From Rhododendron vialii (taxonomy: Eukaryota; Streptophyta; Magnoliopsida; Ericales; Ericaceae): 64,000 nucleotides of DNA. This document shows positions 36,725 through 62,423 of this stretch, one piece after another. Position 1 is the first letter of the stretch. Every line of letters starts with the position of its first letter. The notes under the pieces are model-generated. The model ran no database searches. It was not told the origin of the DNA and saw nothing but the letters and a program-made list of their open reading frames with translations. The stretch spans positions 1,235,001-1,299,000 of the forward strand of contig NC_080557.1 in assembly GCF_030253575.1 (NCBI RefSeq), read 5' to 3'. A program made the position numbers and the translations under genes.

Positions 36725-36770
36725 GGGGAAACACATTTAACCTGCACAATATATGGACCCAGCAGTCACC

Positions 36771-37734: not shown

Positions 37735-38938
37735 TATATATCGCATTGTTGATGTATTTATGTTTCTAGTTTCATGGGCTAATGATCGAGTTACCAAATT
37801 CTCCTCCACCAATTCTCCATGATCTCTTTGTGTGTTCATTTCAGGAGATTTGGGCAAGTAAATATTCCAGCTGGTGCCATAAACAGAACCTTGAAAATAC
37901 AACCATTGTGGAAAATGTTTTTAATTGAAAACATGGTCAAGCATCTAACCTAAAATTAATGTTTCTTTTTGCTTGTCTTGGAGTTGTTTACACAATTCAA
38001 TAAATAGAATGTATTATCTATATAGGGTTTGGATGCTTAGTTGCTATCAAATAATTATTCAAAGCCCTTTGACAATGTAAGCACATGGGGCAAAGAGTTT
38101 TTAAATGGCAGATGAATTGGATTTGTATGGCTAACTACACGCTCAATCTCAATCAAGTAACCAAATGTTGAAGTTGACAAGAATACATAACTAGAAAATG
38201 TGAACACAAAAGTTTTGATCAAAGAAATGTAAATTAAATTTGGACGAATTTGGTCAAAAGGGTTACATATGAGAGTGTGATATCAATTGAGGGACTAAAA
38301 GAAGTGACAAATACCAAAGATATAGTTTTGAAATTTCATGATTGTACATTTCAATGCTTATCGAGGGGCAGCCAAAGGCAAGGCAAACAAGAGTTTGCGA
38401 CCTTCTCAAGTTTCGATATATTACGAAGTATTCTACATAAAATTTTGGTGAATATTTAGAAAATAGTACGTACTTTGACTCTTACAAATTCTAAAGAAGT
38501 ACATCATTGTTTCCCTAGTCAGTAGAATAATTTTATCTTAGCTATTCAAACCATCAATAATTGGTTTAATTGAAAATTTTCTTAGTTTGAATTTTGCGTT
38601 TGCCACTATATACCTCTCTTTTTTTAAAATTTTTTTCATAGTCTGGTATACACAATTCCTAGGAAGCGTTAGGAACTCTATTTTTCCATCTACACAACTA
38701 CTACTAATTAGCTTAAGCTTGGTGGGTCGATTCCTCTCATCATAACTCCAAGCGAATGTTCTCAGATCTTACAAAAGAGTTGGTTTCACCGGAACTAACA
38801 CTCCTTTATAACAATGCTGTTCTAATTACCACAAGTTCAAACCCAACCGGTACACATAGACCATTTAAACACAAACTTAACCATACAATATTTACCAAAT
38901 CTCATGGAAGAACAAAACTCTAACTAAAACACACAAAC
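37735..38938. repeat. Duplicated noncoding block X, copy 3
   Basis: Near-identical to 30195-32773 without its insertions, which supplies the empty sites for them. No supported gene; frame 38250-38459 is not open in the other copies. Confidence 0.8.
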
Positions 38939-39050
38939 TTGCACTTCTCAAAACAATCTACACAAATATTGTACTTAAAGTTTTTTTTTTGCTATAAGTT
39001 GCTTTGTCTGTTAAAGAGGAGTGCCACACCATTATTTGGGGGAAAACATT
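38939..39050 (-). promoter_or_regulatory. Orphan copy of the array promoter (copy 4)
   Basis: Same as 32774-32880, starting TTGCACTTCTCAAAAC, with the same lost TATA. Confidence 0.7.
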
Positions 39051-41039
39051 ACATTGGAAAACTCACCCAGAATGACGTTATTATGAAAGCTTCCATTTGA
39101 AAATTATATTCACAATATCGTAATTATAAAAAGTTTGCCCACATTCTATTGTGCCAAAGGCACAAGTTGTGAGCCTTCTTATATGGCTTACATCTCGAGT
39201 TCATTTGTTTGACCTCAATCGTTTTATTTTTCTTTCAATCAACAAAGAAAGTAATATTTCATTGATCTGAATTTTTCATTTTGTTTGGCTCATTGATTTT
39301 TTGGGTCACATGCATTAAGCATGAAGTTTTGATTGGATATCGGTACAGACATGAACAAAGAACAATTTTTCTAAGTGTATTATGAAGTCATATCCATCGA
39401 AAAAATTCACGACAAATATGTCTCGTTCATGCATGTATTGTACTGATGTCCGATCAGCTTTATTTTTTATATGTACTACATAATATTCGAACTAATGAAT
39501 GATTCCGATCAAGCTATATATTGGGTTTGAAGTGTGCACCATTGAAGCCTCGCTACTGTCTTCTGAGCACAACAGAAATTTTGACTTGCAGTGCATTCCA
39601 ACTTATGCCGCAACACTGGCCGATTGGAAACGTCTGAGGTTATTGACGTTAGCTAGGTTAGACAAAGTTAAATTAGTACAGATTGATAATTTCCTTGCAA
39701 GTTCTATGGCGGGGAGGTGTTGTACTGCACCGCGTGTGCCACCTGGACTGTTGATCTCGGTAATTAACGGTCCGGATTGCACAGTATTGTGCATATAATC
39801 TCAACCGTCCAACCGTTCGGTAATCAGAACCGTTGATTCCTAAGATCAACGGTTCGGATGGGCACAGCACCATGTTGCATAGCACCTCCCCCGGGTTTTT
39901 CCATGGCCTTGGACTTCTGAATTTTTAGTAATTTTTTTGCAATCAGATGTTAGTTGTTGGTATAAACAAGAATAATAAGAGGGTCAACCTTCCGCCCATA
40001 TAAACCTCCTACCCATATAAGTCGAACCTAAAGAGCGCTGGACCAATCAATGGGCCAAACCCAAGGTACAAATTATCCAACTAATCTCCCGACTCCTCAA
40101 CAAGTTGACATCATTTTACGGCGTAATATTTAGTGTATTTATCTATATGCTAAAATTAAATGTTAGGAAACAACCATCATCTACAGTAGGTCAACGAAAG
40201 AAGCCAATTCATTTAAAAAAGTCATATCACATCTACAGATTATCATTGGAATACAGATCAAGCTGTACGGCATTTATAGATTCCCACCTGAATATAGAGA
40301 TACAGACACAACCAAGCCCTAAAGAAAAGGAAAGAAACATAGCTAATGTCTAGCACCTAAGCAAGAGTTATCGCTCATTGCACACTGTTATCAACAAAGA
40401 TCGGCTTACATGGAGCTAGTACCACAGACAACAAATGCCTTGGGATGGCGGAGCTCCATAACAAAGATAGCATCAAAAATCGATGGAAATCGACAACCCA
40501 TACAACATAAATCTCGACAGAAATCGGACTAATCCGGACAAAAACCGGATTAAATCCTAACAAAAACAAAATAATATAAAATATAAATACTTCTCCGTCA
40601 TTGAGCAGCCCTTCTCTTGCCTAGCCTCTACCGATCAAATCTCTCAAGCCGCTGACTCAAGAAGCCACGTGGCAACCACGCGGCTGCGAACTAAGAAGCA
40701 ATGCGGCGGCAAACGACAAGCGGTTTGAGCGGAGAAAGGGAAGGGGAAACCAGATCTGAAGATAGGAATTGATTCCTCCCCTCCTACCGCCCAAAGTTAG
40801 GTATAAACCCAAGGGAGGAGGAGGAGAAGAAGAGAGAAAATCTGACGGTTATTTTAGGGTTAGAGAGACGTGCTCCCGTTTTTAGAGAGACTTAGTAGGG
40901 CCGTAGGGTATCAGTCAACTACGAGTTTACAAATGCAAGAAAAAAATTTTTAAAAAAACCCGGCATTTAAAGTATATCTGTTTTAAAGTATATCTGTTAC
41001 AATTTTATTATAATATTTTTTGTAGTGCGTTGGACGTTA
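39051..41039. repeat. Family 5' flank Y, copy 4
   Basis: Near-identical to 32881-34835. Around 40783 it gives the empty site for the TRIM at 26604. Confidence 0.8.
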
Positions 41040-41796
41040 ATGAGTCAGGGGCTGTTTGGGAGCTTGATTATTGCATTTTGCATTGTGTAGTTTGCATTTC
41101 GAGCGTTTGGCAGCCAAATTATCAAAAGCATTCTCAAAATTACACAATAGAGCTAGCCACAATCTGATAATCTTCCTTCTATAAGGAGCTTTTGAATTTT
41201 CATTTTACACTTTTTTTCCTAACACGAAAAGAAAAAAATGCCCCTAACCATCTACAGGTATTTACCTAAAGAACCTGTTTTTTTTTTTTGCCCATCTCTT
41301 CAAATTTTCTTTTTCAAAAATCAGATAAAATAACAGCAGATGAGTGAGAACAAAGCCCAAGCCTCAGAGGGGGAACGCCGGAGACCGGCGATGGTGCAAT
41401 GTCAACAATAACATTGACATTGATGCTATTAACGCCAAGATTATTTGAGTTCGAATAATAATAATAATATTGATGTTTTTTCGATGAGATTATTTATTCC
41501 TTCGCTAAGAGTTCCATTTAATAAACAGGCTATGCGGGTACAAATATCTCCAACCCTGGATCTATGCGAAATCGTCCATCAAAGCAACAAATTCTGTTTG
41601 GAGATTCCATCTAAATGCTACAGTAATAGGCATCATCCTATATAAACTTTCTACTATTATACATATTCAATAACATTATTCGATGCAAACATACATGCAT
41701 GTGCTACAATGCTAGGGCACACAAATTAAAAAGATAATACTAATACATTTGAAGGGAAAAAGGGTAAAAGTAAGAAATCAAGCCAACAAATTAATA
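41040..41796. other. 3' flank of gene 5
   Basis: Same composition as 34922-35683, with a shorter AAT run (41455-41469). No other gene. Confidence 0.6.
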
Positions 41797-42756
41797 TCAC
41801 ACACGAACTTGCCCTTGTGCAGCTTCTTTCTCAGGGATTTTACTATACTCTAAGCTTTCTTGCAATTCAACCTCTTCACCATGTGTTTCCTTGCACTGGA
41901 AATACAAAACTGTGTAGCTCAAGAGATAAACCATTGCCACCAGGCTATTAAAAGCCGTTGCGAAAAATCCATTGATGATCTGCATCGATACGGATTGTTG
42001 ATTTGGTCTAACCTTAAAACTCTGACTAATAATCACCATTACTATTGTACTGAGAAGACTTAGTGTAAACCCATGTAGCCTCTTCCCCTTAACAAGCCCT
42101 TCAGCTTTTCCAACTGCCTGAAGTCCATAACAGCTCTTCTCGATCACTGAAATCACCAAGGCCATGTCCCAAACGACAGCCAAGTATAAGCACAAAATCG
42201 AGGCGAAAAAGCCAAGTGTGAAGATGATGGCTATTAGGACAAGAAAGTGACTGATACATAGAATCATTAGAGAAATCAACAAAATTAAGAACAGGCCGAA
42301 GTAACCTGTCGAGAGAAGTTTAAGGTGGAACAAAGTGACTAAAGTTCTAAAACACAACTTTGGGATTCTCGAAACAAAATCCCGAAAAGACAAGGTCCTA
42401 TCGCTGTAAGCTATGACGGATGCCAGAATCATTGCGACCGTGGAAAAAAGGGAGACAGCCAAGGAAGGAAGCAAATATAGGAATTCGAATCCAATGATGA
42501 TTTGAACATCTTTCTGGATATGTTTGAACGAGTCAACGATATTTGTGATATTGGAGTTCGAAAGAGAGAGAATGGTTTCTTGGGTGAGTAAGTTGCTGAT
42601 CGCGGGCCTGGTGGAGGAGGACTTGGTGAACAAGAGGAGGGAGTTTAGGAGGATGGAGATTGTGGTTATGGTGGCTATGAGCTTCCCATTTTTGGATATA
42701 ACCTTTATGCACTGCCTTAGAATTCCTAAGAAACCAAGAATCTCATAACCTTTCAT
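41797..42756 (-). CDS. Multi-pass membrane protein, array copy 5, intact (subfamily B)
   Basis: 319 residues from the ATG at 42756 (MKGYEILGFLGILRQCIKV); the upstream in-frame ATG at 42768 is not shared. I used it as reference for the family. Predicted membrane segments are 26-43, 85-116, 135-165, 170-205, 228-247 and 258-286. A polar loop 44-84 contains NIT (69-71). The conserved loop KAEGLVKGKR spans 217-226, between segments 4 and 5. A Cys (288) sits in YFQCKETHGEE, and the acidic tail ends QGQVRV. All codons are in one exon and no defects are visible. The family resembles uncharacterised plant six-TM proteins; no catalytic or transport motif is seen. Confidence 0.88.
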   Translation of the reverse strand: MKGYEILGFLGILRQCIKVISKNGKLIATITTISILLNSLLLFTKSSSTRPAISNLLTQETILSLSNSNITNIVDSFKHIQKDVQIIIGFEFLYLLPSLAVSLFSTVAMILASVIAYSDRTLSFRDFVSRIPKLCFRTLVTLFHLKLLSTGYFGLFLILLISLMILCISHFLVLIAIIFTLGFFASILCLYLAVVWDMALVISVIEKSCYGLQAVGKAEGLVKGKRLHGFTLSLLSTIVMVIISQSFKVRPNQQSVSMQIINGFFATAFNSLVAMVYLLSYTVLYFQCKETHGEEVELQESLEYSKIPEKEAAQGQVRV

Positions 42757-42836
42757 TGCACTTCTCAAAAACTATCTAGAGAAGTTCTCTGTTATTTTAG
42801 CTCTTGTGTTGCTTTGTCTAAGGAGAAATGGCACCA

Positions 42837-42843
42837 TTATATA
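42837..42843 (-). promoter_or_regulatory. TATA box of gene copy 5
   Basis: TATATAA on the minus strand, about 80 bp upstream of the ATG, in the conserved block. Confidence 0.65.
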
Positions 42844-45417
42844 GAGGAAAAACATTTAACCTGCACAATTTATCTATGGACCCAGTATGACGTTATCATG
42901 AAAGTTCTTCTATGAGAATAATAAGCACAATATTCAAATTATAGAAAGTTTGCCCAAATCCTATTGCGCCAAAGGCACAACAGGACTGTTGTGATGCATC
43001 TTACATGGCATGTATCTCGAGCTCATTGGTTTGATCACAACTGTTCATTTTGTTTGGCTCGTCGGATAATTTCTTTTACGGAAAACATGAAGTTGATCGG
43101 ATCTTAGGACATACAATTTTTTCCCCTAGAAATTCATGATATCCAAGAAAATTTGTCCAGAAAAACATGTCCTGTTTATATATGTACTGATTTCCGATCA
43201 ACATCATTTTTTTGGGGTGACCAACCAAAGGAACAACCCAAACAAAGTGAATGATTTGGATTAAACTACTGGGCTCCGGACGCAATACTATTGAAGGCTC
43301 ACAACAGCATACTAGGCACAGCAGAACCTCCGGTTCGTCTTGAATTAGTCTGTTCCAACGTATGGTGGGGGATTGGAAAAGTCTAAGGTTAGCCAGATTA
43401 GACCAAGTTGAATGGTACAGATTGATAGTAATTTCCTTGCCATTTCTGTATAGGCCCCAGCCAGGCCTCTGAGGCTCTGATTAGTTTGGAAATTAGCCAA
43501 TCTCCTCAACAACAAGTCTGCATCCAATTACGAGCTATTCATCTACGCGGTAACTTGTCAGGAAACAACAATCATCCGCACTGCAGGTCAACCCCACAAC
43601 CTCTTTGTTTATAACTCACTTGTTTTGATCAGGTTAAGCGCACCTCGTCTAATCTTATTCTGGTTGACCTATCTCACCGCCCATTTGCAGAAATCTCAAT
43701 TAAAGCAAGAGCAAAGCTTTGTATTGACAGTGCCCTAAAAGATTTGATAACAATTGTCAGGATTTGAATTTGAGAACTCATGAGAGAGCGTTAACCCCTA
43801 ACCTCTCATCTTTAAAATTGTAATGTCATAAAGCATTTTGCACCCAATATTTTTTATTTTGATCCGTCAATAAAACATCTAATCGGGCAAAACCTGTTTT
43901 TGTTTTTAAGTTTTAACCCCACAACCTGAAAAGCCTGACTTTGCCCCTGCAACTTAATTAGGGCTAGTTTCACTTTCCACTATATTTTTTTGTTGCATGT
44001 TATTAATAGTCAAGTTGTTTCTGCTAAATAGTATTTTTGTTGATGTATGTGAGGATAATGACCCGTTAGAAATCTGTAAATATTTGGGTTTTAGTCCATT
44101 TAAGAAATGCAATTTTTCGGGAGTCAAGAACTGAAAATTAGTTCTCTTTAATATGATTTGTTCATAGTCAAGGACTTAATTTTTGTAGCTATCGTAACCC
44201 TAGCATTATTGAAGTAGTGGCGGGACCCAAACAATCAAACACTTCAATTAATTGTGTAAGGCCGAAGGCAGTGGCGGAAGGTGCACGCTTAATTAGGACC
44301 TCTTCAGTTTTTCTCCGTCGAATAGTTAGCCGCTCAAAAGGGTTTTGTAAATGTATAGAAGTTATTGAGGCTTGGTCTACAAGTTCCCAGTTGATCGAGA
44401 AATATTCACTTCTTCTTCGTCAACTTACCATTAACTTGACATCTACTAGCAACTAAAATAATTCACCAATGATAAGTCCGGTCAAAATACAGAATTCCGT
44501 AACTAAAACCTTACGGCAACGCATCGAAACAAATATCTATGTTCAACATCAAAGTCCGGTCAAAATACAATGGCGCTCGAGAAGTACCGGCTTTGTTCTT
44601 TTTTCTCATCTCAAAGACTTAATACCTTTCAGCATACAAGCAGAAGGCCCATGTACCCCTATGCCGAAGTTGAGAATTACGACATCAAAAAATCCACTAC
44701 CTAAGGCCCTTTTTTTTTTTTTGCACATTCAATTACCAGGAAAGTTGTAGAATTCACATCTTTAACTGTCCCACTGGGGAATACTTTCCTGCAAAACAAG
44801 TCTTGCTTAAAGGAAGAAATTCTTGTTTTCCTGCAAGATTTCTTGTCAAGAGAATACATACAGGAAAATAAATTCCATTTTTCCTTTACTTCACCTCACT
44901 TAACTTTTCCTAGGATCCAATTTGCCACATAACATTCTCGACAACTGAATGGGCCCATAGTAACTTAAAAGCTTGGAAAATGCATTGGTCTCATAAGTTT
45001 GGACACAAATTCATATTATCATGTGTTCAGTCATCAAATGACTTCCAGTACTTACATGTGTGTGTGGCATGAGTTGGGTTGTACGGAGTATTATAATTTT
45101 GGTCAATATTTTTCGGTGAGATTATTTATTCTTTCGCTAGTAGTGATCCCATCAAATAAACAGGCTATTTGGATACAATATCTCCAACCCTGGTTCTATG
45201 TGAAATCGATCATGAAAGCAAAACAATTTTGGTAGTTGAAGGTCATGTTAATTACATTAAAAAGCTAATTAAGAGGTATCATTCTATATAAACTTTCTAT
45301 TATCCATATTAAATTACATTATTCGATGCATACCTACATGTGCTAGGGCACATGCACAAAAAAGAGACGGCATTTGAAGGAAAAAAGAGTAAAAGTAAGA
45401 CATCAAGCCAACAAATA
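42844..45417. other. 5' flank of gene 5 and 3' flank of gene 6
   Basis: 42896-44460 is related to flank Y (GGCATGTATCTCGAGCTCATTGG, here cut to the core ATCTCGAGCTCATTGG) and to 46480-47970 and 51000-52330. From about 45100 it is the 3' flank shared with genes 4, 5 and 7. The frames at 44217-44456 and 44469-44750 are not preserved in the paralogous flanks. No gene supported. Confidence 0.55.
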
Positions 45418-46377
45418 TCACACACGAACTTGCCCTTGTTGTGCAGCTTCTTTCTCGGGGATTTTACTATACTCTAAGCTTTCTTCCAATTCAACCTCTT
45501 CACCATGTGTTTCCTTGCACTGGAAATACAAAACTGCGTAGCTCAAGAAATAAACCGTTGCCACGAGGCAAATAAAAGCCGTTCCAAAAAATCCACGAAT
45601 GATCTGCGTCGATACGGATTGTTGATTCCGTCTAACCTTAAAACTCATATGAAAAATCTCCAATACTATTATACGGAGAAGTCTTAGTGTAAACCCATGT
45701 AGCCTCTTCCCCTTAACAAGCCCTTCAGCTTTTCCAAATGCCTCAAGTCCATAACAGCTCTTCTCGATCACTGAAATCACCAAGGCCATGTCCCAAATGA
45801 CAGCTACGTACATGTAGAAAATACAGGCCAAAATGACAAGTATTATGATGGCTATTAGGACAAGAGGGTGATCGATAGGTAGAATCGTTACAGAAAGCCT
45901 CAAAACCCAGAGAAGCCCGATGTCACCTGCTGTGTAAAGTCTAAAGTGGAACAAAGTGACTAAAGTTCGTAAACACAACTTTGGTATTCTCGAAAGAAAG
46001 TCCCCACAAGACATGTTCCTATTGCTGTAAGCTACGGCTGATCCCAGAATCACTATGACCAAGGAAAAGAGGTAGACAGCCTCACAAAGAAGGAAATATA
46101 GGAATTCAAATCCAATGGCGATTTGAACATCTTTCTTGATATGTTTGAACGAATCGACGATATTTGTGATATTGGACTTCAAAAGACAGAGAAGGGTTTC
46201 TTCGTTGAGTAAGTTGCTTATCCTGGGCTTGCTGGAGTAGAACTCGGTGAAAAAGAGGAGAGAGTTTAGGAGGATGGTGATTGTGGTTAAGGTGGCTATG
46301 AGCTTCCCATTTTTGGATATAACCTTTATGCACTCCCTTAGAATTCCTAAGAAACCAAGAATCTCATAACCTTTCAT
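45418..46377 (-). CDS. Multi-pass membrane protein, array copy 6, most diverged open subfamily-B copy
   Basis: 319 residues from the ATG at 46377 (MKGYEILGFLGILRECIKV), with no longer in-frame start. The family layout is kept: first membrane segment from residue 26, polar loop with N-x-T (SNITNIVDSF), KAEGLVKGKR loop, and tail YFQCKETHGEEVELEES ending QQGQVRV. Segments 2-4 have many substitutions compared with copies 4, 5 and 7 (for example AVAYSNRNMSCGDF and GDIGLLWVLRLSV). These include a Gly-Asp pair in a hydrophobic segment and extra Cys residues. It is open throughout, but relaxed constraint or divergence in role is possible. Its TATA is weakened (CTATATGATGG, minus strand, near 46446). 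Confidence 0.85.
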   Translation of the reverse strand: MKGYEILGFLGILRECIKVISKNGKLIATLTTITILLNSLLFFTEFYSSKPRISNLLNEETLLCLLKSNITNIVDSFKHIKKDVQIAIGFEFLYFLLCEAVYLFSLVIVILGSAVAYSNRNMSCGDFLSRIPKLCLRTLVTLFHFRLYTAGDIGLLWVLRLSVTILPIDHPLVLIAIIILVILACIFYMYVAVIWDMALVISVIEKSCYGLEAFGKAEGLVKGKRLHGFTLRLLRIIVLEIFHMSFKVRRNQQSVSTQIIRGFFGTAFICLVATVYFLSYAVLYFQCKETHGEEVELEESLEYSKIPEKEAAQQGQVRV

Positions 46378-48888
46378 TGCACTTCTCCAAGGAAGTTGTG
46401 AGTTATTTTAGCTCTTGTGTTGCTTTGTCCTAAGAGAAATGCCACCATCATATAGAGAGGAAAAACAATATATGGATCCAGTATGACGTTACTATGAAAG
46501 CTGCTCTATGAGAATTAAATGCACAACATTCTAATGGTTACCCACTTTTTATTGGGCACAAGGCACAACAGAACTATTGTGAGCTATCTTAAATGGCCGG
46601 CATGTATCTCGAGCTCATTGGTTTGATCTCAATTGTTCGTTTAGTTAATTTGGCTATCAACATGAAGTTGATCGGATGTTAGTACACACATTTAGTCAAA
46701 AAAGCCACAAATCTGGCCCTACGTACGTATGGTGGGGGGATTGGAAAAGTCTAAGATTATTGACGTTGGCCAGATCACGCCAAGTTGAATAGTACAGATA
46801 GATAACTTCCTTGTATAGGCCCCAGGCTGTTTAATTAATACTACTAGAAAACAAATTAGCCAATCTCCTCAACAAGTCTACGTCCAATTACTTCCTATTT
46901 AGGCTATTTATCTACGTGCTAACTTGTCCGGTCCCAATTAAACTTAGAGCAGAATTTAGTATGAACTGCTTCAAAAAAATTGATAGCACCTTACTAATTT
47001 CGAACTTAAGATCTTAAGAGAGAATAGTTATTTTGACCCGATGATATAACGTCTAATCTAACTTGGCCAACCCTTTTTAGCTTTTTGGAAGTTTTAAGCC
47101 CACGACCTGAAAGCCTCCTGAACCAGGAGGAGCAGGAGAGTATTTGATCGGGAAGGGTAGCCAACTATACTAGTACTGGCCCAACCGTCCTGCTTTCCTG
47201 TCTTCTTTTTGTGATTTTCTTGAAAGTTGAAACATAAATCAACTGGCTAATCAAATGAAGTATACTCTCCTTTAGCCATCTACTCTATCTACTAATGAGA
47301 GGTTGAGGAATCCAATTTTTCGGAAGTCAAGAATTGATAATTAGTTCTCCTGGATAAGAAAATTTGATTTGGGTTTTGAGAGAGATTTTTGAATAATGAG
47401 TGAAGAAAGATAGATAAAAATAAATAAAAGTAACAATTGAAAAGAAAACTTGTTGGAGATGGTGCGTAACAAAGAGGGTTTGAGTTTTGAGATCCAAAGC
47501 GAACACAGTCTTCGTACCTAGTCTAGGACTTTTTAGTTGTCGTAATCCTCACATAATTAATGTAGTGGCACGACTCGCACAATCGGACTCTGATTGTGCA
47601 AGGCGGAAGACTGTGTTCGCATTGGGTCCCAAAATGGTTTTGTACAACGAATAGTGAGCCGCTTAAAATGGTTTTGTAAAGTAAAGTTTTTTTTTTGGAA
47701 TTGAATCAAAAGTGAATTTTTATTTTGTATGGGGGAGCCCAGTCCCTCCGTAGCTCCACCTATGTGCCGCTTGTTATAATTATTTGAATGTAATCCTTCT
47801 AACTCATTTTTTTTTTAGAAAGGCAAAAAAATTTCATTTTTTTCTTAATTTCTTTGAAAGTAAAATCAAGAATGCAGGGTTATTGGGGCTTGGTCTACAG
47901 TCTAGTACTGCTTTCTCTACTTGAAAATTCACTTCTTCTTCGTCAACGCCGTTAACATCTAAAGTAGCAAACTAAAATAATTCACCAATGACAGGTCTGG
48001 TCAAAATCAATACAGAATTCCGTTGCTAAAACCTTACGGCACGCATCGATAAAAAAAATAAATACATATGCTTAATTCGACATCAAAGATTTATTCCAAT
48101 TTAAAAAATAATAATCAGAGCCGCTAGAGGAGTGGCTTTGTTCTTTTGCATGTCATCTCCATAAAACTTATCCTCAACGTACCGGTTGTGGAAGGCACCT
48201 TGTACTCTCATATATTTGGCTGAGGTTCAAATCTTACGAAGTACAGCTAACAGTAATAACTTTCGCTAAGAGAACAAAAAAAATTACTGCTTCGTCATTC
48301 TTTTTTTTTTCTCCTCTAGTGATTTTGATTTTGAAACTTAACAAATTATGTTTTAGTCTTCGGGTATATTGACCGCACCACTATCTAAAAAAGTAAAATG
48401 AAAATTAAAAACCTCTTAGAAAAAGTTTATTCAATAAAGTCAAATGGTCATTAAGTAAAGTCAAAGGTAGGCAATTTTTTTCGTTTTTAGTAAAACTTTT
48501 AATTTTTTTGTTGAGTTTCTGGGTGTGCCTAATCTAGATGTATTTATTAGAAATAATTTTTTGTTTGTTAAAAATTTGACTAAAGAAGAAAAAATACGCA
48601 ACTACCTCTATAACTTTTTTCCTTCAAAATTAAAAATACCCATGCATTTGGCTGAGAAACATGTTTGTTGCAGCTGCGAGATTATGAGAATTTTATTTAT
48701 TTCTGAAAACTTGTGTTGCAGAATTTCAAAAGCTACCCATACCCAGCTTTGGAATTTTGAGAATTTCTTTCCTTTTTCACATTCTCAGAATCTATAGATT
48801 CTAAAAGTCAGTTTTGTAGAATTTTGGAAAACATTCTAAACTGATTTTTAGCAAGAATCTAAAACTCTATCAAAATTGGTTTTCACAA
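46378..48888. other. 5' flank of gene 6
   Basis: Holds the weak promoter, then flank related to those of genes 5 and 7, up to at least 48620. The region 48437-48620 (CTGGGTGTGCCTAATCTAG, CAACTACCTCTATAAC) reappears at 59554-59745, on the far side of the palindrome array of gene 7. Frame 48525-48797 is not preserved there. No gene. Confidence 0.55.
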
Positions 48889-49956: not shown

Positions 49957-50910
49957 TCACACACGAACTTGCCCTTGTGCTGCTTCTTTATCGGGGATTT
50001 TACTATACTCAAAGCTTTCTTCCAATTCAACCTCTTCACCATGTAATTCCTTGCACTGGAAATACAAAACTGTGTAGCTCAAGACATAAACCATTTCCAC
50101 CAGGCAATTGAAAGCTGTTGCGAAAAATCCACAAATGATCTGCATCGATACGGATTGTTGATTTGGTCTAACCTTAAAAATGTTACTAATAATCACCATT
50201 ACTATTGTACAGAGAAGACTTAGTGTAAACCCATGTAGTCTATTCCCCTTAACAAGCCCTTCAGCTTTTCCAAATGCCTGAATTCCATAACAGCTCTTCT
50301 CGATCACTGAAATCACCGAGGCCATGTCCCAGACGACAGCTAAGTACGTGAAGAAGATTAAGGCGAGAAAGCCAAGTGTGATGACGATGGGTATTCCGAC
50401 AAGAGGGTGATCGAAACATAGAATCACTAGAGAAATCAACAAAATTAAGAAAAGGCCAAAGTAACCTGTCCCGAGAAGTGTACAGTGGAACGAAGTAACT
50501 AAATTTCTAAGACACAACTTTGGGATTCTCCAAAGAAAATCCGCAAAAGACAGGTTCCTATCGCTGTAAGCTACGACCGATGCCAGAACCATTGTGACAA
50601 AGGAAAAGAGGGAGATAGCCAAGGAAGGAAGAAAATATAGGAATTCAAATCCGATGATGATTTGAACATCTTTCTTGATACGTTCGAACGTGATATATGT
50701 CGTATTGGGGTTCAAAAGAGGGCGAAGGGTTTCTTGGGTGAATAAGTCGCTGATTGCGGGCTGGGTGGAGGAGGACATGGTGACCAAGAGGAGGGAGTTT
50801 AGGAGGATGGAGATTGTGGTTATGATGGCTATGAGCTTCCCATTTTTGGATATAACCTTTATGCACTCCCTTAGAATTCCTAAGAAACCAAGAATCTCAT
50901 AACCTTTCAT
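49957..50910 (-). CDS. Multi-pass membrane protein, array copy 7, intact (subfamily B)
   Basis: 317 residues from the ATG at 50910 (MKGYEILGFLGILRECIKV), the only sensible start. Same layout as copy 4, including the two-residue-shorter loop (NTTYITFERIKKDVQIIIGF). It has six hydrophobic segments, the loop KAEGLVKGNR and the tail YFQCKELHGEEVELEES then FEYSKIPDKEAAQGQVRV. No defects are visible. The promoter and TATA are conserved. The ~7 kb palindrome array sits about 1.7 kb upstream. Confidence 0.87.
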   Translation of the reverse strand: MKGYEILGFLGILRECIKVISKNGKLIAIITTISILLNSLLLVTMSSSTQPAISDLFTQETLRPLLNPNTTYITFERIKKDVQIIIGFEFLYFLPSLAISLFSFVTMVLASVVAYSDRNLSFADFLWRIPKLCLRNLVTSFHCTLLGTGYFGLFLILLISLVILCFDHPLVGIPIVITLGFLALIFFTYLAVVWDMASVISVIEKSCYGIQAFGKAEGLVKGNRLHGFTLSLLCTIVMVIISNIFKVRPNQQSVSMQIICGFFATAFNCLVEMVYVLSYTVLYFQCKELHGEEVELEESFEYSKIPDKEAAQGQVRV

Positions 50911-50997: not shown

Positions 50998-52594
50998 GAG
51001 GAAAAACATTCAACATGCACAATATATGTATCCAGTGTGACGTTATCATGAAAGCTCTTCTATGAGAATTATGCGCACAATATCCAATCATAGAAAGTTT
51101 GCCAAAATCCTATTTTGACCAAGGCACAACAGGACTGTTGTGAGACATCTTACATGGCATGGATCCTGAGCTCATCAGTTTGATCACAACTGTTCATTTT
51201 GTTTGGTTCGTCGGGTAATTTCTTTTAGGGAGAACACAAAGTTGATCGGATCTTAGTACGTACATTATTGACGTTATCCAGATTAGACCAAGTTAAATAG
51301 TACAGATTGATAATTTACTTGCAATTTCTATATAGGCCGGCCCGGGCCTTTGAATAGTTGAGAAATTAGCCAATCTCCTCAACAAGTCTGCATCCAATTA
51401 CGCCATATATATTTATCTACTTGGGAACTTGTCAGGAAACTTAACGTATCATCCACACTATAGGTCAACTACCCAACCTTTTTGTTTATAACTCACATGT
51501 TCGGTTTAACCTATGCACACCTCGCTTAATCCTGTCATCTAGGAGACCAATCTCACTGCCCGTTTGCAGGAATTCCAATTAAAGCTAGAGCAAAACTCTA
51601 TATGGATAGTGCCCGAAGGATTTGATACAACCTGAGAGGACTCTGCTCCTGCAATTTAGTGACCCAACTGTCCTGCTTTCCTCTCTTCTTTTTTGTATTA
51701 TTAATGCTTGCTTGTCTTCCTTGTTGTTGAAACAGAGATGAACTGGCCAATCGAAGGAAGCATGCTCTCTTTTAGACATTACCACACTTCTGCACTATCT
51801 ATTGAGAGGTTAAGGAATCCAATTTTTCGGAAGTCAAGAATTGATAATATTAGTTCTCCTGAATAAGAGAATTTGAGTTGGGTTTTTTTGAAAGGAAATT
51901 TTTTGAATAATGAGTGGAGAAAGATGGATACAAAAATAGAAACAACAATTTAAGAGAAAAATTGTTGGAGACTGTCCGTAGAGAGAGGAGTAGAGTTTTG
52001 AGACCCAAAACGAAAGTAAATTTTTTTATATTTTGTATGGGAAAGCCCACTCCATCGGTACCTCCGCCTCTTTGCCCCGTGATATAATTATTCAAATGTA
52101 ATCCTTCTAACACATGACGTCATAAATGTGTTTAACCTTGCATTCTTGAAAGCGAAATCAAGAATGTAGGGGAGGCTTGGCCTACGGTCTTTTTTTAACA
52201 CGGAATTAAAGATAATATATAGTAATTTCACTTATCATCTCCACTAGACTTGGTCTATAGTCTAGTACTGCTTTCTAGTTGAAAATTCACTTCCTCTTCG
52301 TCAACACCATGCATTAACATCTGAAGTAGCAACTAAAATAATTCACCAATGACAAAGTCTGGTCAAATAAAAGAATTCCGTTGCTAAAACCATACGGCAC
52401 GAAATGATACAAAAATACATATGCTTCAACATCAAAGATTCATTACCGATTTAAAAAGTAATAATCAAAGCAAGGGGCTGGAGGAGTGGCTGAGTAAAAA
52501 AGAACAAAATTACTGCTTCGTCATCCCTTTTTTTTTTTCTCTAGTGATTTTTGATTTTGAAAATTTGCAAATTATTTTTTACTTTTCTGGTATA
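50998..52594. other. 5' flank of gene 7
   Basis: Related to the 5' flanks of genes 5 and 6, for example GGCACAACAGGACTGTTGTGA, here only its core ACAGGACTGTTGTGA, and TTGAAAATTCACTTC. It is interrupted at 52594 by the palindrome array. No gene. Confidence 0.55.
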
Positions 52595-55500
52595 TTGAAA
52601 AATTGGTAGAAAGAACCACTACAAAAATCGTCAAGGCGACTAAGGCTAAAACAAGTTCTAAATTTCATTCGGTGATCAAATCCTTAGTTTGTAGATATAT
52701 CTTCATTGGTTAAGTGAATATCAATGAGTTTATAAAGCATTTACACTTCATCGAATCATAAGAAAAACTGTTTAATCATTCGCCAAAAGCGGGGCTTAGA
52801 TAGTTTCAAAGCCAATTTTTGAAAGTTACAACCACCAACACAATGTAAAAACTCTTTGAAATGGTTTCTCCTATGCTTCGATGAAATGTAGATGCTCTTT
52901 GAACTCTTTGAAACACTTAAGCAATGAAGATATACCTACAAACAAGGGATCTGATTACCGAATGAAATATAGAACGTGTTTTATCCTTGGTTGCCTTGAA
53001 TTAAGATTTTTGTAGTGGTCTTCTTTCTACCCAATTTTCATAAATGAAACTTGAATTTTTATGTGATTGTATTCCATCATCTCTTAGTACTTCAAAAACT
53101 CTATCTATTGATATATAATGGGTCTTTATCCGTTTTAAAATGAGCGACATACGAGCGTTTTACCGAAATAAATTATTTTTTGACCCACTGAGGGTAAAAT
53201 GGTCACATCTCTTGATATACAAATGATTTTTTATCCAAAATAATTGGGTTAGAAAGTAAATTGAACAAGCTTTTCAACGATTCAGACCATGCGCAAATCG
53301 GATTTCGAGAGTTCCTGTGTCAATCTTGCAAAGTTTGACTTGTTTTGGAATATGTAGGATGCGCCTGGGGCGCATTCAGGTGCGCCTGATGCGCATTGAA
53401 TTGCACCTTAGGAAAAATAAAGCATCAAAAGAGGTTAAACTTTGAAGGGTTGCCCTGGACACTCCCGAACTCTGATTTGCCCATAGTTTGAACCATTTAA
53501 AAGTTTGTTCAATTTTCTTTCTAACCCGAGTAGTTTGGAAAAAAAATCATTTGTATATCAAGAGATATGCCTATTTTACCCTCAATGGTTCAAAAAAAAA
53601 AATCCATTTCGAAAAATGCTCATATATATGTCCCTCATTTTAAATCGAATGGAGCCCATTATATATAAATAATTAGAGTTTTTAAAGTAATAAGAGATGT
53701 TGCAATCCAACCACAAAAATATTTAAATTTTGTTCGTGAAAATTCGGTAGAAATAAACAACTACAAAAATCGTTAAGGTGAATAAGGCTAAAACATGTTC
53801 TAAGTTTCATTCGGTGATCAAATCCTTAGTTCGTAGTTATTTCTTCGTTGGTTAAGAGAATTTCAAAGAGTTTATAAATAATTTTCACTTCATCGAATCG
53901 TAGAAAAAATTGTTTCGTCATTCGCCGAAAGCGGAGCTTATATAGTTTCGAAGCAAAATTTTGGAAGTTACGACTACCAACACAACATAAAAACTCTATG
54001 AAACGATTTCTCCCACACTTTGATTAAATGTAGACGCTCTATGAACTCTTTTAAACACTTAATCAATGAAGAAATACGTATGAACTAGGGATTTGATCAT
54101 CGAATGAAACCTAGGACGTGTTTTAGTCTTGGTGGCCTTGACGATTTTTTTAGTGGTCTTCTTTCTACCCAATTTTCATAAGAAAAACTTGAATTTTTTT
54201 TATGGTTGGATTCCATCATCTCTTTGTACCTCAAAAACTCTATCTGTTGATATATAATTGGTTTTGATCCGATTTAAAGTGAGGAACATACAAGCGTTTT
54301 ACCAAAATGGATTTTTTTTGAACCATTGAGGGTAAAATGGTCACATCTCTTGATATAGAAACGATTTTTTATCCAAACTTCTTGGATTAGAAAGAAAATT
54401 GAACAAGTTTTTAAACGGTTCAAACCACACGCAAATTGGAGTTCGGGAGTGTCCAGGGCAACCCTTTAAAGTTTGACGTCTTTTGAAGCTTTATTGCTCC
54501 TAAGATGCAATTCTATGTGCCCAGGCGCACTTAATATACGCCCCAGGCGCATCCTACGTTTCAAAACAAGTCAAACTTTGCGAGCTTGATATAGACACTC
54601 TTGAAATCCGATTTGCGTGTGGTTTGAATCATTGAAAAGCTTGTTCAATTTGCTTTCTAACCAAAGTAGTTTGGATTAAAATAAAAAAAAATCATTCGTA
54701 TATCAAGAGATGTGACCATTTTACCCTCAATGGGTGAAAAATAATTTATTTCGGTAAAATGCTCATACATCCCTCATTTTAAATCGGATGAAGACCCATT
54801 ATATATCAATAATTATAGTTTTTAAATTATTAAGAGATGGTGCAATCCAACCATAAAAAAAGTTTCATTAAAGAAAATTTGGTAGAAAGAACCACTTAAA
54901 AAACCCATCAAGGCAACTAAACCTAAAACACTTGTAAGTTTCATTCGGTGATCAAATACTTAGTTTGTTGGTATATATTCATTGGTTAAGTGAATATGAA
55001 AGAGTTTATAAAGCATTTACACTTCATTGAATCATAGGAAAAACTGTTTCGTCATTCGCCAAAAGCGGGGCTTAAATAGTTTTCGAAGCCAAATTTTGAA
55101 AGTTACAACCACCAACACAATGTAAAAACTCTTTGAAACTGTTTCTCCTACGCTTCGATGAAATGTAGATGCTCTTTGAACTCTTTGAAACACTTAAGCA
55201 ATGAATTAAGATATACGTACGAACATGGGATTTGATTACCAAATGAAACATAGAACGTATTTTATCCTTGGTTGCCTTGAAGATCATTTTTGTAGTGTTC
55301 TTTCTACCCAATTTTCGTAAACGAAACTTGAATTTTTTTATGATTGTGTTCCATCATCTCTTAATTAGTACTTCAAAAACTCTATCTATTAATATATAAT
55401 GGGCCTTGATCCGTTTTGAAATAAGGGACATACGAACGTTTTACCAAAATAAATTATTTTTTGACCCACTAAGGGTAAAATGGTCACATCTCTTGATATA

Positions 55501-58500
55501 CAAATGTTTTTTTATCCAAAATAATTGGGTTAGAAAGTAAATTGAACAAGCTTTGCAACGATTCAAACCATGCGCAAATTAAAGTTCGGGAGTTCCTGTA
55601 TCAAGCTTGTAAAGTTTGACTTGTTTTGGAATTTGGAGGATGTGTCTGGGGCGCATTCAAGTGCGCCTGAGGCGCATTGTATTGTGCCTCAGGAGCAATA
55701 AAGCTTCAAAATAGGTCAAACTTTGAAGGATTGCCCTAGACACTCCCAAACTTTGATTTGCACATAGTTTGAACCATTTAAAAACTTGTTCAAGTTTCTT
55801 TCTAACCCGTGTAGTTTGGATAAAAAAAAACATTTGTATATCAAAAGATAAGACTATTTTACCCTCAATGGTTCAAAAAAATAATCCATTTCGAAAAACG
55901 CTCATATGTCCCTCATTTTAAATCGAATCGAGCCCATTATATATAAATAATTAGAGTTTTTAAAGTAATAAAAGATGGGGCAATCCAACTATAAAAATAT
56001 TTAAATTTTGTTAATGAAAATTGGGTTGAAACAAACAACTAGTAAAATTGTCATGGCGACTAAGGCTAAAACATGTTCTAATCCGTTCCGGAACACGAAA
56101 TAAGTACTTATTTTTTATGAATGTAATTTTAAGCTAAAAAATGATGGATTTATTGAAATCTAAAAATCTTGTTTGAAAGATCTCATTGAGATCTTTAATA
56201 AGGTGCAAAAAAACTCAAAAAATTATTTTTCATTTATATTATTTTTTAGTTTGAAAATGTGAAATAAGTACTTATTTTTTAAGAAGGTGTTCTGGAACGA
56301 GCTCTCATTTTGGTGATCAAATCCTTAGTTCGTAGGTATATCTTCTTTGGTTAAGTGAATTTAAAAAAGTTTATAAATAATTTACACTTCATCGAACCAT
56401 AGGAAAAACTGTTTCGTCATTCAGTGAAAGCGGGGCTTATATAATTTCGAAGCAAAATTTTGGAATTTACGACTACCAACTCAATGTAAAAACTCTTTGA
56501 AACGATTTCTCCAACGCTTCGATGAAATGTAGACGCGCTATGAACTCTTTGAAACACTTAAGCAATGAAAAAATAAGTACGAACTAGTAATTTGATCATC
56601 CAATGAAACCTAGAACGTGTTTTAGTCTTTGTGGCATTGACGATTTTTGTAGTGGTCTTCTTTCTACCCAATTTTCATAAGCAAAATTTGAATTTTTTTA
56701 TGGTTGGATTCCATCATCTCTTTGTACCTCAAAAACTTTATCTGTTGATATATAATGGGTTTTGATCCCATTTAAAGTGAGTGAGAAACGATTGTTTTAC
56801 CGAGACGAATTATTTTTTTGAACCACTAAGCATAAAATGGTCACATCTCTTGATATACAAAAGATTTTTTATCTGAACTGCATGGGTTAGAAAGAAAATT
56901 GAACAAGCTTTTCAACGGTTCAAATCATGCGCAAATTTGGAGTTCGGTAGTGTCCAGGGCAACCCTTCAAAGTTTGACGTCTTTTGAAGCTTTATTGCTC
57001 CTGAGGGGCATTTCTATGCGCCCAGGCGCACATCAAATGCGCCCCAGGCGCATCCTACATTCCAAAAAAGTCAAATTTGCGAGCTTGATACTGACACTCC
57101 TGAAATCCGATTTGCGCGTAGTTTGAACTGTTGAAAAGCTTGTTCAATTTGCTTTCTAACCCAAGTAGTTTGGATAAAAAAAAAATCATTCGTATATCAA
57201 GAGATGTGACCATTTTACCCTCAGTGGGTCAAAAATAATTTATTTCAGTAAAACACTCATATGTCCCTCATTTTTAATCAGATCAAGACCCATTATATAT
57301 CAATAATTAGAGTTTTTAAATTATTAAGATGGTGCAATCCAACCATAAAGAAAAGTTTCATTAATGAAAATTGGGTAGAAAGAACCACTACAAAAATCGT
57401 CAAGGCGATTAAGGCTAAAACATGTTCTAAGTTTCATTCGGTGATCAAATCCATAGTTTGTAGGTATATCTTCATTGGTTAAGAGAATATCAAAGAGTTT
57501 ATAAAGCATTTACGCTTCATCAAATCATAGAAAAAACTGTTTCATCATTCACCGAAAGAGGGACTTAAATAGTTTCGAAGCCAAATTTTTGAAGTCTTTG
57601 AACTCTTTGAAACACTTAAGCAATGAAGATATACATATGAACGAGGGATTTGATTATCAAATGAAACATAGAACGTGTTTTATCCTTAGTTGCCTTGAAA
57701 TTTTTTGTCATGGTTTCTTTCTACCCAATTTTCGTAAACGAAACTTGAATTTTTTTATGATTGTATTCCATCATCTCTTAGTACTTCAAAAACTCTATCC
57801 ATTGATATATAATGGGTCATGATCCGTTTTAAAATGAGGGACATAAGAAAGTTTTACCGAAATAAATTATTTTTTGACCCACTGAGTGTAAAATGGTCAC
57901 ATCTCTTGATATACAAATGATTTTTTATCCAAAATAATTGGGTTAGAAAGTAAATTGAATAAGATTTTCAACGATTCAAACCATGCGCAAATCGGATTTC
58001 GAGAGTTCCTGTATCAAGCTTGCAAAGTTTGACTTGTTTTAGAATGTGGAGGATGCGCCTGGGCGCATTCAAGTGCGCCCGAGGTGCATTGAATTGCGCC
58101 TCAGGAGCAATAAAGCTTCAAAAGAGGTCAAACTTTGAAGGGTTCCCCTGGACACTCCCGAACAACAATTTGCACATAGTTTGAACTATTTAAAAGTTTG
58201 TTCAATTTTCTTTCTAACCCGAGTAGTTTGGAAAAAAAATCATTTGTTTATCAAGAGATATGACTATTTTACCCTCAATGGTTCAAAAAAATAATCCATT
58301 TCGAAAAACGCTCATATGTCCCTCATTTTAAATCGAATCGAGCCCATTATATATAAATAATTAGAGTTTATAAAGTAATTGTAGATGGTGCAACCCAATC
58401 ATAAAAATATTTAATTTTCGTTCATGAAATTGGGTAGAAATAAACAACTAAAAAAATCGTCAAGGCAACAAAGGCTAAAACATGTTCTAAGTTTCATTCG

Positions 58501-59553
58501 TTGATCAAATCCTTAGTTTGTAGGTATTTCTTTGTTGGTTAATTAAGTGAATTTCAAAGAGTCTAAAAATAATTTACACTTCATTGAACCGAAGGAAAAA
58601 CTATTTCGTCATTCGCCGAAAGCAGGGCTTATATAGTTTCGAAGCAAAATTTTAGAAGTTACGACTACCAACACAACGTAAAAACTCTTTGAATTGATTT
58701 CTCCTATGCTTCAATGAAATCTAGGCGCTCTATGAACTCTTGGAAACACTTAAGCAATGATGAAATATGTATGAACTAGTAATTTGATCATCGAATGAAA
58801 CGTAGAACGTGTTTTAGTTTTGGTGGTCTTGACGATTTTTGTAGCGGTCTTCTTTTTACCAAATTTTCTTAAGCAAAACTTGAATTTTTTTTTTTTTGTA
58901 GTTGGATTCCATCATCTCTTTGTACCTCAAAAACTCTATCTGTTGATATATAACGGGTTTTGATCCGATTTAAAGTGAGTGACATACGAGCGTTTTACCG
59001 AAATAGATTATTTTTTTGAACCATTGAGGGTAAAATGGTCACATCTCTTGATATAGAAACGATTTTTTTTATCTAAACTGCTTGGGTTAGAAAGAAAACT
59101 GAACAAGCTTTTCATATGTTCAAACCACGCGCAAATTGGAGTTCGGGAGTGTCCAAGGCAACCCTTCAAAGTTTGACGTCTTTTGAAGCCTTATTGCTCC
59201 TGAGGCGCAATTCTATGCGCCCAGGCGCACTTCAAATGCGGCCCAGGCGCATCCTACATTCCAAAAAAGTCAAACTTTGCGAGCTTGATACAGACACTCC
59301 TGAAATTCGATTTGCGCATGGTTTGAACCGTTGAAAAGCTTGTTCAATTTGCTTTCTAATCCCAGTAGTTTGGATTAAAAAAAATCATCCGTATATTAAG
59401 AGATGTGACCATTTGACCCTCAGTTGGTCAAAAATAATTTATTTCGGTAAAACGCTCATATGTCCCTCATTTTAAATCGGATATAGACCCATTATATATC
59501 AATAATTAGAGTTTTTAAATTATTAAGAGATGGTGCAATCCAACCATAAAGTC
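52595..59553. repeat. Array of six alternating long palindromes (A/B), ~7 kb insertion
   Basis: Six units of about 1.15 kb follow one another. Each has palindrome A (first copy 52595-53040) opening GAAAAATTGGTAGAAAG and closing CTTTCTACCCAATTTTC, arms ~185 bp, and palindrome B (first copy 53041-53738), arms ~330 bp around a GGCGCATT-rich centre. B centres lie near 53375, 54515, 55665, 57020, 58065 and 59215. The central sequence reads alternately forward (GCGCCTGGGGCGCATT) and reverse (GCCCCAGGCGC). The fifth A (57365-57740) has a deletion and the fourth A a MITE. The flanks on either side (52560-52594 and 59554-59745) correspond to one continuous stretch beside gene 6 (48340-48620), so the array is an insertion. 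No frame longer than ~80 codons; none is shared between all units. Confidence 0.8.
56081..56305. mobile_element. Small MITE inside the fourth palindrome A
   Basis: Ends CCGTTCCGGAACAC and, inverted, GTGTTCTGGAACGAG, both followed inwards by AAATAAGTACTTATTT. The other A palindromes run through TGTTCTAAGTTTCATTCGG without it. Target duplication unclear. Confidence 0.6.
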
Positions 59554-59884
59554 AAGTCAATGCTAGCCAATTTTTTTTATTTTTAGTAAACCTATAACTT
59601 CTTTTTTTTATTATCCGGGTGTGCCTGATTTAGATGTATTCAGAAAGGATTTTTTATTTTTTATTGTTAAAATGTTAAAAAAAAAAGATTGACTAAAGCA
59701 GAAAAAAAAAAAAAGCAACTACCTCTACAACTTGTTTTCCTTCAAAAAACTCATCTCGAATAACACAACTATGTTGCCAAAAGGCCTATCGATAGAACTC
59801 AAACATAATATAGTAGCCTACTAAGTTTCAAAGACTACATGAAAAAACCACGAGTCTCTAATCTACTAGGAATAAATTCGATGA
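59554..59884. other. Continuation of gene 7 5' flank beyond the array
   Basis: 59560-59745 matches 48437-48620 beside gene 6. No gene. Confidence 0.6.
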
Positions 59885-61588: not shown

Positions 61589-62423
61589 ATGAAAAGTAAA
61601 GCAATAGTAGTTTCGAACAAGCGTTCGAATTTTCTTGATATTTTGATGAAATCTATCAAACTCCTATTCGAAAATCGGAAGCTTATAATTGTCACCATTG
61701 TTACAATTTCGTCCATCCTCCTCCACTCTCTTCTCTTGATTAGCACCATCACCTCTGCGAACCAGATCTTCACTCTCGCTCGCTTCTTTTGCTATCTTGC
61801 TACTAGCGATGGTTTTAGAACCGACCGCAGCACACCACGGGAAGACTTTCATGTCCGCTCTGCCTCTGCGGCTAATTTTTATGCGCTTGGCTTTTGTCTA
61901 CATTTTGTTCGCTATTTTTTCGACCCCTCTAATTGATCTTGTAATAAGCGTTGCTGATCCTTCCCTGGGTTTCGCGGTAATAATCCAAAGTGCCATTTTG
62001 TTTGGTGTTTTAGTATCAGGGTGTGTGTCGCTCTACTTACACGTTGTTTGGTATTTGGCCCTGGATATTTTCGGGGATGAAAGCAGTGGTTCCGAGATTA
62101 CGGCATGGCGGAAAGCTCAAAGCATTGTGAAGGGAAAGAGGCGGATAAGCTGGTTCGCTGTGAATTTTTCCATAGCACTGTTGCGTTTGTTTTTTGTTCA
62201 TCTCTTGAGCGGACGTAATGAATCGAGATTACCAGGCGAGATGATCGTAGGGTTTCTTCTGACTGTTTGTAGTTGTGGGACGGCATTGCTTCAACACTTG
62301 AGCTACATTTTGGCATGTTTCAAGAGGAAGAAGATGAGGCCTGGTGATTATGTTGAATTGGAATGGGGCTTGGCATACTGCAAAATATCCACCACACCAC
62401 TCCTCAGTGAAGACTTTCCATGA
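61589..62423 (+). pseudogene. Diverged copy 8 of the membrane protein family, opposite strand, broken
   Basis: The N-terminal part, from the ATG at 61589 (MKSKAIVVSNKRSNFLDILM), gives FENRKLIIVTIVTISSILLH, matching SKNGKLIATITTISILLN of the array. The frame is lost near 61790-61800 and resumes in another frame (from ~61797 to 62423) with LLAMVLEPTAAHHGK then LPLRLIF, which fits the region after membrane segment 2. The polar loop and most of segment 2 are missing. Downstream, LHVVWYLALDIFGDE, AWRKAQSIVKGKR, LSYILACFKRKK and DYVELEWGLAYCKIS match the corresponding array motifs. Compared with the array it is old, inverted and both deleted and frameshifted. A very short unrecognised intron could be an alternative explanation. 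Confidence 0.65.

What the first reader, a model, noticed from the sequence alone, without database searches (positions are those of the whole stretch)
52595..59553. Seven-kilobase array in which two unrelated long palindromes alternate and each unit flips orientation
Six ~1.15 kb units each contain palindrome A (~450 bp) and palindrome B (~690 bp). The asymmetric GC-rich centre of B alternates forward and reverse along the array. Ordinary satellites run head to tail, whereas this looks like inverted dimers amplified as ~2.3 kb units, or a foldback element that grew by hairpin-mediated copying. A transcript across it would fold into long double-stranded RNA, so it may be an siRNA source near gene 7. 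The array is absent from the matching flank of gene 6, so it arrived as one block or grew in place after duplication.
Basis: seen in the sequence. Interest (0 to 1): 0.72.

Follow-up and report, generated by a model that had tools for sequence, protein, structure and literature searches.

The report
Plant satellite with alternating flipped cores
This is a short block of plant repetitive DNA built from a long mirror-image repeat that comes in two forms, normal and core-flipped, which were locked together as a pair and copied three times; it is an unusual repeat architecture, with no sign of a coded product or a selected RNA hairpin.

Summary
The array is real, but its description needs correction. 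It is three tandem copies of a ~2.28 kb unit holding two ~1.14 kb repeats. A and B are not unrelated palindromes: each repeat is one long palindrome (arms ~490 bp, ~78% identical), and A is the junction between neighbours. Whole units do not flip. All six A cores point the same way; only the inner 170-475 bp of B is inverted in repeats 2, 4 and 6 (outer-arm sites keep sides 9 of 10, inner sites swap 9 of 9). Odd and even repeats form two clades (support 1.00), so a normal + core-inverted pair was amplified as one unit. The pair recurs on contig C2; arrays on C8 and C3 hold altered forms; C9 carries the core-inverted form alone. The 14 readable solo-type copies are core-normal, so inverted is probably derived. 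A paralogous flank keeps an approximate empty site: no target duplication, ~70 bp of target missing, block ends within ~16 bp of the same phase, as expected if a circle of three units integrated. Arm differences show no bias toward G-U pairing, so selection for an RNA hairpin is unsupported.

The parts
52595..59553 (+). whole block: three ~2.28 kb two-repeat units, circularly permuted, both ends in an even-type right arm
52780..52862 (+). A core 1 (asymmetric centre of palindrome A, + orientation; junction between neighbouring repeats)
52819..53909 (+). repeat B1, core-normal (centre 53356-53420, +)
53925..54005 (+). A core 2, + orientation
53961..55050 (+). repeat B2, core-inverted (centre 54491-54555, -)
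55056..55138 (+). A core 3, + orientation (end approximate)
55096..56415 (+). repeat B3, core-normal (centre 55637-55701, +)
56081..56308 (.). 228 bp unrelated insertion inside the right arm of B3
   Evidence: gap in matches
56421..56502 (+). A core 4, + orientation
56460..57544 (+). repeat B4, core-inverted (centre 56992-57056, -)
57552..57600 (+). A core 5, + orientation, partly deleted (end approximate)
57595..58607 (+). repeat B5, core-normal (centre 58050-58113, +)
58616..58700 (+). A core 6, + orientation (end approximate)
58656..59546 (+). repeat B6, core-inverted (centre 59191-59255, -), right arm cut at the block end
53152..53303 (+). interval in the left arm (B1 coordinates) that holds the left breakpoint of the core inversion seen in even repeats; left-right arm identity is highest here (87% at 53180-53229)
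48269..48629 (+). approximate empty site in the flank of gene copy 6: 48269-48372 matches 52493-52598 and 48449-48629 matches 59545-59747; 76 bp between them has no match at the block

Best explanation
A moderately repeated, apparently non-coding ~1.1 kb long-palindrome repeat exists in two forms. The derived form has its inner core (170-475 bp) inverted, most likely by one recombination between the two arms of the palindrome, in the stretch where the arms are most alike. A normal and an inverted repeat lay side by side and were amplified together as a ~2.28 kb higher-order unit. A block of three such units then integrated in the window between two gene copies by end joining, probably from a circle of three units (integer phase, no target duplication, ~70 bp of target missing). 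Shown: orientation map, shared two-repeat unit, two clades, approximate empty site, phase. Inferred: arm-to-arm recombination as the cause of the inversion, and the circular intermediate.
For: Orientation map: in the window A cores are 6 of 6 '+', while B inner arms alternate. Diagnostic columns in 19 repeats (6 window, 8 C2, 5 C8, one of these partial): 46 of 625 columns; 9 keep sides, 10 swap, 24 uninformative, 3 unclear. All 9 'keep' sites lie at 52886-53152 and 9 of 10 'swap' sites at 53303-53342, with one exception at 52931 (Mann-Whitney p 0.0009, or 0.012 after thinning the swap sites to 5). Left-right arm identity peaks inside the breakpoint interval: 87% at 53180-53229 and 84% at 53230-53279, against 77-80% further out and 67% nearer the centre. 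Clades: support 1.00 for A and for B; with even cores turned back, window cores are 90.5-93.5% odd-odd, 89.7-91.6% even-even, 81.9-85.8% odd-even. Polarity: 14 of 14 solo-type copies with a readable left-inner, right-inner, A-core order are core-normal (the L015 probe source and close paralogues included); 19 of 19 complete C9 repeats are core-inverted. C9 is nearer to even than to odd repeats: left outer arm 87.2% against 79.8%, core 83.6% against 79.1%. Block: approximate empty site and phase within ~16 bp, about a 1.4% chance for random ends in a 2.28 kb phase (my arithmetic). [quoted passage not shown]
Against: One 'swap' site lies in the outer arm (52931), and swap sites are clumped, so independent events are few. 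The empty site is a paralogue only 74-83% alike, so the ~70 bp may have been lost or gained in either copy. A linear insertion of one pair followed by growth in place would also give integer phase. Window pairs are 90.0-90.8% alike and 88.7-90.0% like C2 pairs; they separate from C2 pairs with support 1.00 in the unrooted pair tree, but window even repeats mix with C8 ones in the even tree at 0.713, so it is unclear whether they were amplified here or arrived together. One C8 repeat (L046, 1195-1337) is a mosaic: solo-like left arm and core, even-like right outer arm. L018 has A cores in both orientations and L024 gave no clear order; neither was counted. Termini and target duplications of the solo repeat were not found.
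Confidence: 0.72

Rival explanations
1. Head-to-head inverted dimers of the whole ~1.14 kb unit, amplified as ~2.3 kb units.
For: Odd and even repeats do form two clades and the B centre does alternate.
Against: A cores are six of six in the same orientation and 9 of 10 informative outer-arm sites keep their side.
Confidence: 0.07
2. The array grew in place from one inserted pair by unequal exchange; no three-unit circle was involved.
For: Integer phase is equally expected. Local amplification does occur in this family: a C2-specific insert adjoins pairs at five places, and C8 units carry the same ~786 bp segment; C2 pairs are 94-96% alike and C8 even repeats 94-96%.
Against: A single inserted pair lacks overlapping ends for unequal exchange, leaving only odd-even similarity of about 80-86%; the window pairs are nearly as diverged from each other (90%) as from C2 pairs (89-90%).
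Confidence: 0.35
3. A foldback-type DNA transposon that moved here as an element and carried its tandem units inside.
For: Long inverted arms and dispersed solo-type copies on many contigs; a foldback transposon gave rise to a satellite in Drosophila virilis (PMC4079207, abstract).
Against: No target duplication recognised at the block, no shared termini recognised among solo copies, no long coding frame in the arms.
Confidence: 0.15
4. A hairpin RNA / siRNA locus kept by selection and acting on the neighbouring gene copies.
For: A transcript would fold into very stable hairpins; the block starts 1,685 bp upstream of the start codon of gene copy 7.
Against: Arm differences are balanced between G-U and A-C (27:31 and 19:24); no Rfam family matches; expression untested.
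Confidence: 0.1

Closest known systems
Long-dyad satellites of Tribolium (T. brevicornis 1061 bp monomer with ~470 bp inverted segments; T. madens TmSat2 and macro-dyads; PMC13081366, passages)
   Same: tandem monomer that is itself one long imperfect palindrome (here ~1.14 kb with ~490 bp arms); higher-order organisation
   Different: plant genome, short blocks near genes, and alternation of the palindrome core alone rather than of monomers or subarrays
Foldback-derived satellites such as Tetris / TIR-220 of Drosophila virilis (PMC4079207, abstract)
   Same: long inverted repeats associated with tandem arrays
   Different: no termini or target duplication found here; the whole palindrome is the repeat, not a sub-repeat of its arm
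Plant satellite eccDNA as a vehicle of amplification (PMC2543021, abstract)
   Same: would explain integer multiples of a higher-order unit at a new site
   Different: no circle has been observed for this repeat
Inversion of the spacer between inverted repeats by homologous recombination (general knowledge, recalled)
   Same: flips the centre and leaves outer arms in place
   Different: here apparently one old event, then fixed inside a higher-order unit

Membership tests
higher-order-repeat satellite DNA | head-to-tail tandem copies of one unit | tested here: met
   A cores six of six in + orientation at ~1.14 kb spacing apart from the insertion in B3
higher-order-repeat satellite DNA | multi-monomer unit: same-position monomers more alike than neighbours | tested here: met
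   A units 87.0-90.9% within class, 82.4-86.0% between; support 1.00; re-oriented cores 89.7-93.5% against 81.9-85.8%
higher-order-repeat satellite DNA | long, abundant (heterochromatic) arrays | tested here: not met
   this block is 6.96 kb; the C9 repeats are more numerous but interrupted (L036 and L037 gave no probe match). Satellite-like, not a major satellite
foldback DNA transposon | long inverted repeats | tested here: met
   arms of ~490 bp in the window and similar palindromes in solo copies
foldback DNA transposon | defined termini with target-site duplication | tested here: inconclusive
   none recognised in solo copies; none at the block
CACTA transposon | CACTA at the element ends | tested here: not met
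   CACTACAAAAATC lies inside the arms and L015 reads CAACTACAAAAATC there
hairpin siRNA locus | selected base pairing of the transcript | tested here: not met
   no G-U over A-C excess
hairpin siRNA locus | small RNAs produced | not testable with these tools
   no RNA data

The most novel reading that the evidence does not exclude
A satellite whose higher-order structure is written in the orientation of a palindrome core: one arm-to-arm recombination created a mirror form of the monomer, the two forms were locked in alternation, and the pairs (and the mirror form alone, on C9) then spread through the genome as circles. Its ~1.14 kb palindromic monomer with ~490 bp arms would be on a par with the most prominent intra-monomer dyad that PMC13081366 cites (~470 bp segments).
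Probability: 0.4. Interest if true: 0.5.

Novelty: new variant of a known kind. Interest (0 to 1): 0.36.

Why it matters
Long dyads inside satellite monomers are described as uncommon (PMC13081366, passages), and a higher-order unit defined by inversion of a palindrome's core gives a marker for arm-to-arm recombination and for how satellite blocks enter gene regions. The alternation holds in all 7 pairs examined (3 window, 4 C2), so the flip looks rare rather than a switch. Whether such blocks travel as circles is testable here, because the block ends and an approximate empty site are known.

Tried and rejected
CACTA ends: rejected, the motif is internal and differs in the L015 solo copy. Coding content: no long frame in the arms of the window block or of L015 (the longest with a start codon, 130 residues on the minus strand of L015, was not searched in a library). 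Known RNA: none at Rfam gathering score. Solo-copy termini: similarity runs from about L015 2084 to 3295 and fades without a shared end or target duplication that I could recognise. RNA selection: unsupported. CpG observed/expected is 0.99 in the block against 0.66-0.71 in 1-52000, CHG 0.5 against 0.88: mixed, not interpreted. Species: guessed from 13 contigs and 532 Mb as a possible Rhododendron; recalled, not verified. Literature: searches listed no title or abstract start that describes a plant satellite with an alternating palindrome core, and one search returned nothing; several lists were capped and the library holds open-licence papers only. Inverted amplification through hairpin-capped DNA (PMC10766183, search listing only) would, as I understand it, flip A cores too, so it was set aside. 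The direct odd-even identity of B (79.2-81.5%) is lowered by the inversion itself; re-oriented cores and outer arms were therefore compared.

Full report
What is there. The window is C1:1235001-1299000 of a 13-contig, 532.6 Mb genome. The block at 52595-59553 is not reported as an array by Tandem Repeats Finder, which was limited to periods of 500 bases, but self-comparison shows direct matches at ~1.14 and ~2.28 kb spacing and inverted matches throughout. Mapping one half-repeat, from the A centre to the B centre, across the block gives an arm-core-arm pattern six times, with the GC-rich B centre on + - + - + -. The paired arms are about 490 bp and about 78% identical. A and B are not unrelated: they are the two centres of symmetry of one set of arms. 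A solo copy on C6 (L015) is a single imperfect palindrome of about 1.05 kb followed by a sequence like the A core. A arises where two repeats meet.

What flips. Probes for the left inner arm, right inner arm and A core give a clear map. In the window all six A cores are on the + strand, though core 5 is partly deleted. Only the inner part of B changes direction. I aligned both arms of 19 repeats (6 window, 8 from C2, 5 from C8; one C8 repeat is partial) and looked for columns where left and right arms of normal repeats differ consistently: 46 of 625 columns. In core-inverted repeats 9 of these keep sides, 10 swap, 24 are uninformative because both arms agree, and 3 are unclear. The 9 'keep' sites lie at 52886-53152; 9 of 10 'swap' sites lie at 53303-53342 and one at 52931. 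Mann-Whitney p is 0.0009, or 0.012 after thinning the swap sites to five. The left breakpoint is thus between 53152 and 53303; with the mirror position on the right the inverted segment is about 170-475 bp. Left-right arm identity peaks in that interval (87% at 53180-53229, 84% at 53230-53279, against 77-80% further out and 67% at 53280-53329), as expected for recombination between the arms. Recombination is inferred; template switching or cruciform resolution could leave the same picture.

History of the two forms. Odd and even repeats form separate clades with support 1.00, for A and for B. Direct B identity is 90.4-91.5% odd-odd, 89.6-91.1% even-even and 79.2-81.5% odd-even, but the last figure is lowered by the inversion itself. 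With even cores turned back, window cores are 81.9-85.8% odd-even against 89.7-93.5% within class, and left outer arms 79.7-84.6% against 87.8-91.9%. The normal + inverted pair was therefore amplified as one unit. Four full pairs lie in the fetched C2 loci L030 and L031. An insert of ~400-425 bp with ends like AAGGGTCAT/ATGACCCTT adjoins C2 pairs at five places, and C2 pairs are 94-96% alike. In the two fetched stretches of the C8 array at 0.99-1.01 Mb, four of five repeats with both inner arms readable are core-inverted and the one at the left edge is core-normal. That one is a mosaic, solo-like in left arm and core, even-like in the right outer arm. A shared segment of ~786 bp sits between C8 repeats and, in pieces, in the C3 locus L045. 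One search lists even-type matches at ~2.2 kb spacing on C8, and further ones on C3 and at C8 32.8 Mb; these were not fetched whole. On C9, 19 of 19 repeats with a complete probe set are core-inverted, head to tail; two C9 stretches between them, L036 and L037, had no probe match. C9 is nearer to even than to odd repeats (left outer arm 87.2% against 79.8%, core 83.6% against 79.1%). Of solo-type copies, 14 have a complete probe order and 14 are core-normal. This count includes the L015 probe source, a near-identical pair (L022, L023) and several close paralogues; L018 (A cores in both orientations), L024 and copies without an A-core match were not counted. Core-inverted is thus probably derived, most simply once. 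Alternation is unbroken in 3 window and 4 C2 pairs, so the core does not seem to flip often.

How the block came here. The window carries seven tandem minus-strand frames of 269-358 residues for one membrane-like protein family (copy 7 has no Pfam match). The flank of copy 6 matches both sides of the block: 48269-48372 with 52493-52598 (83%) and 48449-48629 with 59545-59747 (74%). Between them 76 bp is present only in the copy-6 flank. Aligning the ends with internal junctions shows that the block starts and ends inside the same even-type arm, with about 16 bases missing between end and start; I recognise no target duplication, and 2-4 bp of microhomology is possible at both ends. The block is therefore three whole units. 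Random ends would fall this close in phase in about 1.4% of cases (my arithmetic). Integration of a three-unit circle by end joining fits best; insertion of one pair with later growth is a serious rival. [quoted passage not shown] The three window pairs are 90.0-90.8% alike and 88.7-90.0% like C2 pairs. They part from C2 pairs with support 1.00 in an unrooted tree, but window even repeats mix with C8 ones at 0.713. The block is thus fairly old and has been little homogenised.

Function. The block lies between copy 7 (minus strand, start codon at 50910, 1,685 bp away) and a plus-strand frame at 61797-62423. A transcript would fold strongly, but that follows from the palindromes. If RNA pairing were selected, arm differences that leave a G-U pair should exceed those that give A-C. 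They do not: 27 against 31 in the odd consensus (8 repeats) and 19 against 24 in the even consensus (11 repeats). No Rfam family reaches its gathering score. I see no evidence for a selected function; effects on neighbouring genes are untested.

Comparison with the known. The nearest kinds are long-dyad satellites of Tribolium beetles, where PMC13081366 (passages) calls the ~470 bp inverted segments of the T. brevicornis monomer the most prominent reported, and satellites that grew from a foldback transposon in Drosophila (PMC4079207, abstract). A review of transposon-derived satellites discusses MITE and Helitron routes (PMC12628747, passages). A study of Vaccinium satellites does not use the word palindrome in its main text (PMC7290377, term search). 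What seems new is a higher-order unit defined by the orientation of a palindrome core. The searches named in Tried and rejected did not show it in print, within an open-licence library and capped lists.

Noticed in passing
4918-5838, 17228-18037, 27918-28994, 35684-36649, 41797-42768, 45418-46377, 49957-50910 (all -): Seven tandem frames of 269-358 residues for one membrane-like protein family; copy 7 has no Pfam match. 31800-36762 and 37979-42885 are a ~5 kb duplication at 94%.
   Followed up: partly
10832-15331: Copia-type retrotransposon frames: integrase core, gag pre-integrase and related Pfam matches in the first frame; the two later frames were not scanned.
   Followed up: no
56081-56308: 228 bp insertion with inverted ends GTTCCGGAACAC / GTGTTCTGGAAC and inner AAATAAGTACTTATTTTTT repeats, MITE-like, in the arm of repeat B3.
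   Followed up: partly
L030 1729-2124 and 4406-4820; L031 3132-3539, 5811-6229 and 8502-8927 (C2): GGCCCGGGCC-rich insert with ends like AAGGGTCAT/ATGACCCTT next to pairs of the C2 array at five places, so it was probably amplified with them.
   Followed up: partly
L046 3480-4265; L047 1441-2225 and 3651-4432; L045 2201-2538 (inverted) and 3086-3397 (C8, C3): Unrelated ~786 bp segment co-amplified with the core-inverted repeat on C8 and present in pieces on C3.
   Followed up: partly
L046 967-1824 (C8): Mosaic repeat: left arm and core like solo copies, right outer arm like even repeats, perhaps a recombinant at the array edge.
   Followed up: no
L018 1581-3281 (C8 5.28 Mb): Copy with A cores in both orientations, so nearly a fully symmetric element.
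   Followed up: no
L011 738-4398 and 6360-10000 (C3): Inverted ~3.7 kb duplication at 95% that includes two solo palindromes.
   Followed up: no
window 52595-59553: CpG observed/expected is 0.99 in the block against 0.66-0.71 in 1-52000, while CHG is lower (0.5 against 0.88).
   Followed up: no
G000 contigs C1, C7, C10-C13: These contig lengths are exact multiples of 2,500 bases, perhaps a scaffolding or trimming artefact.
   Followed up: no
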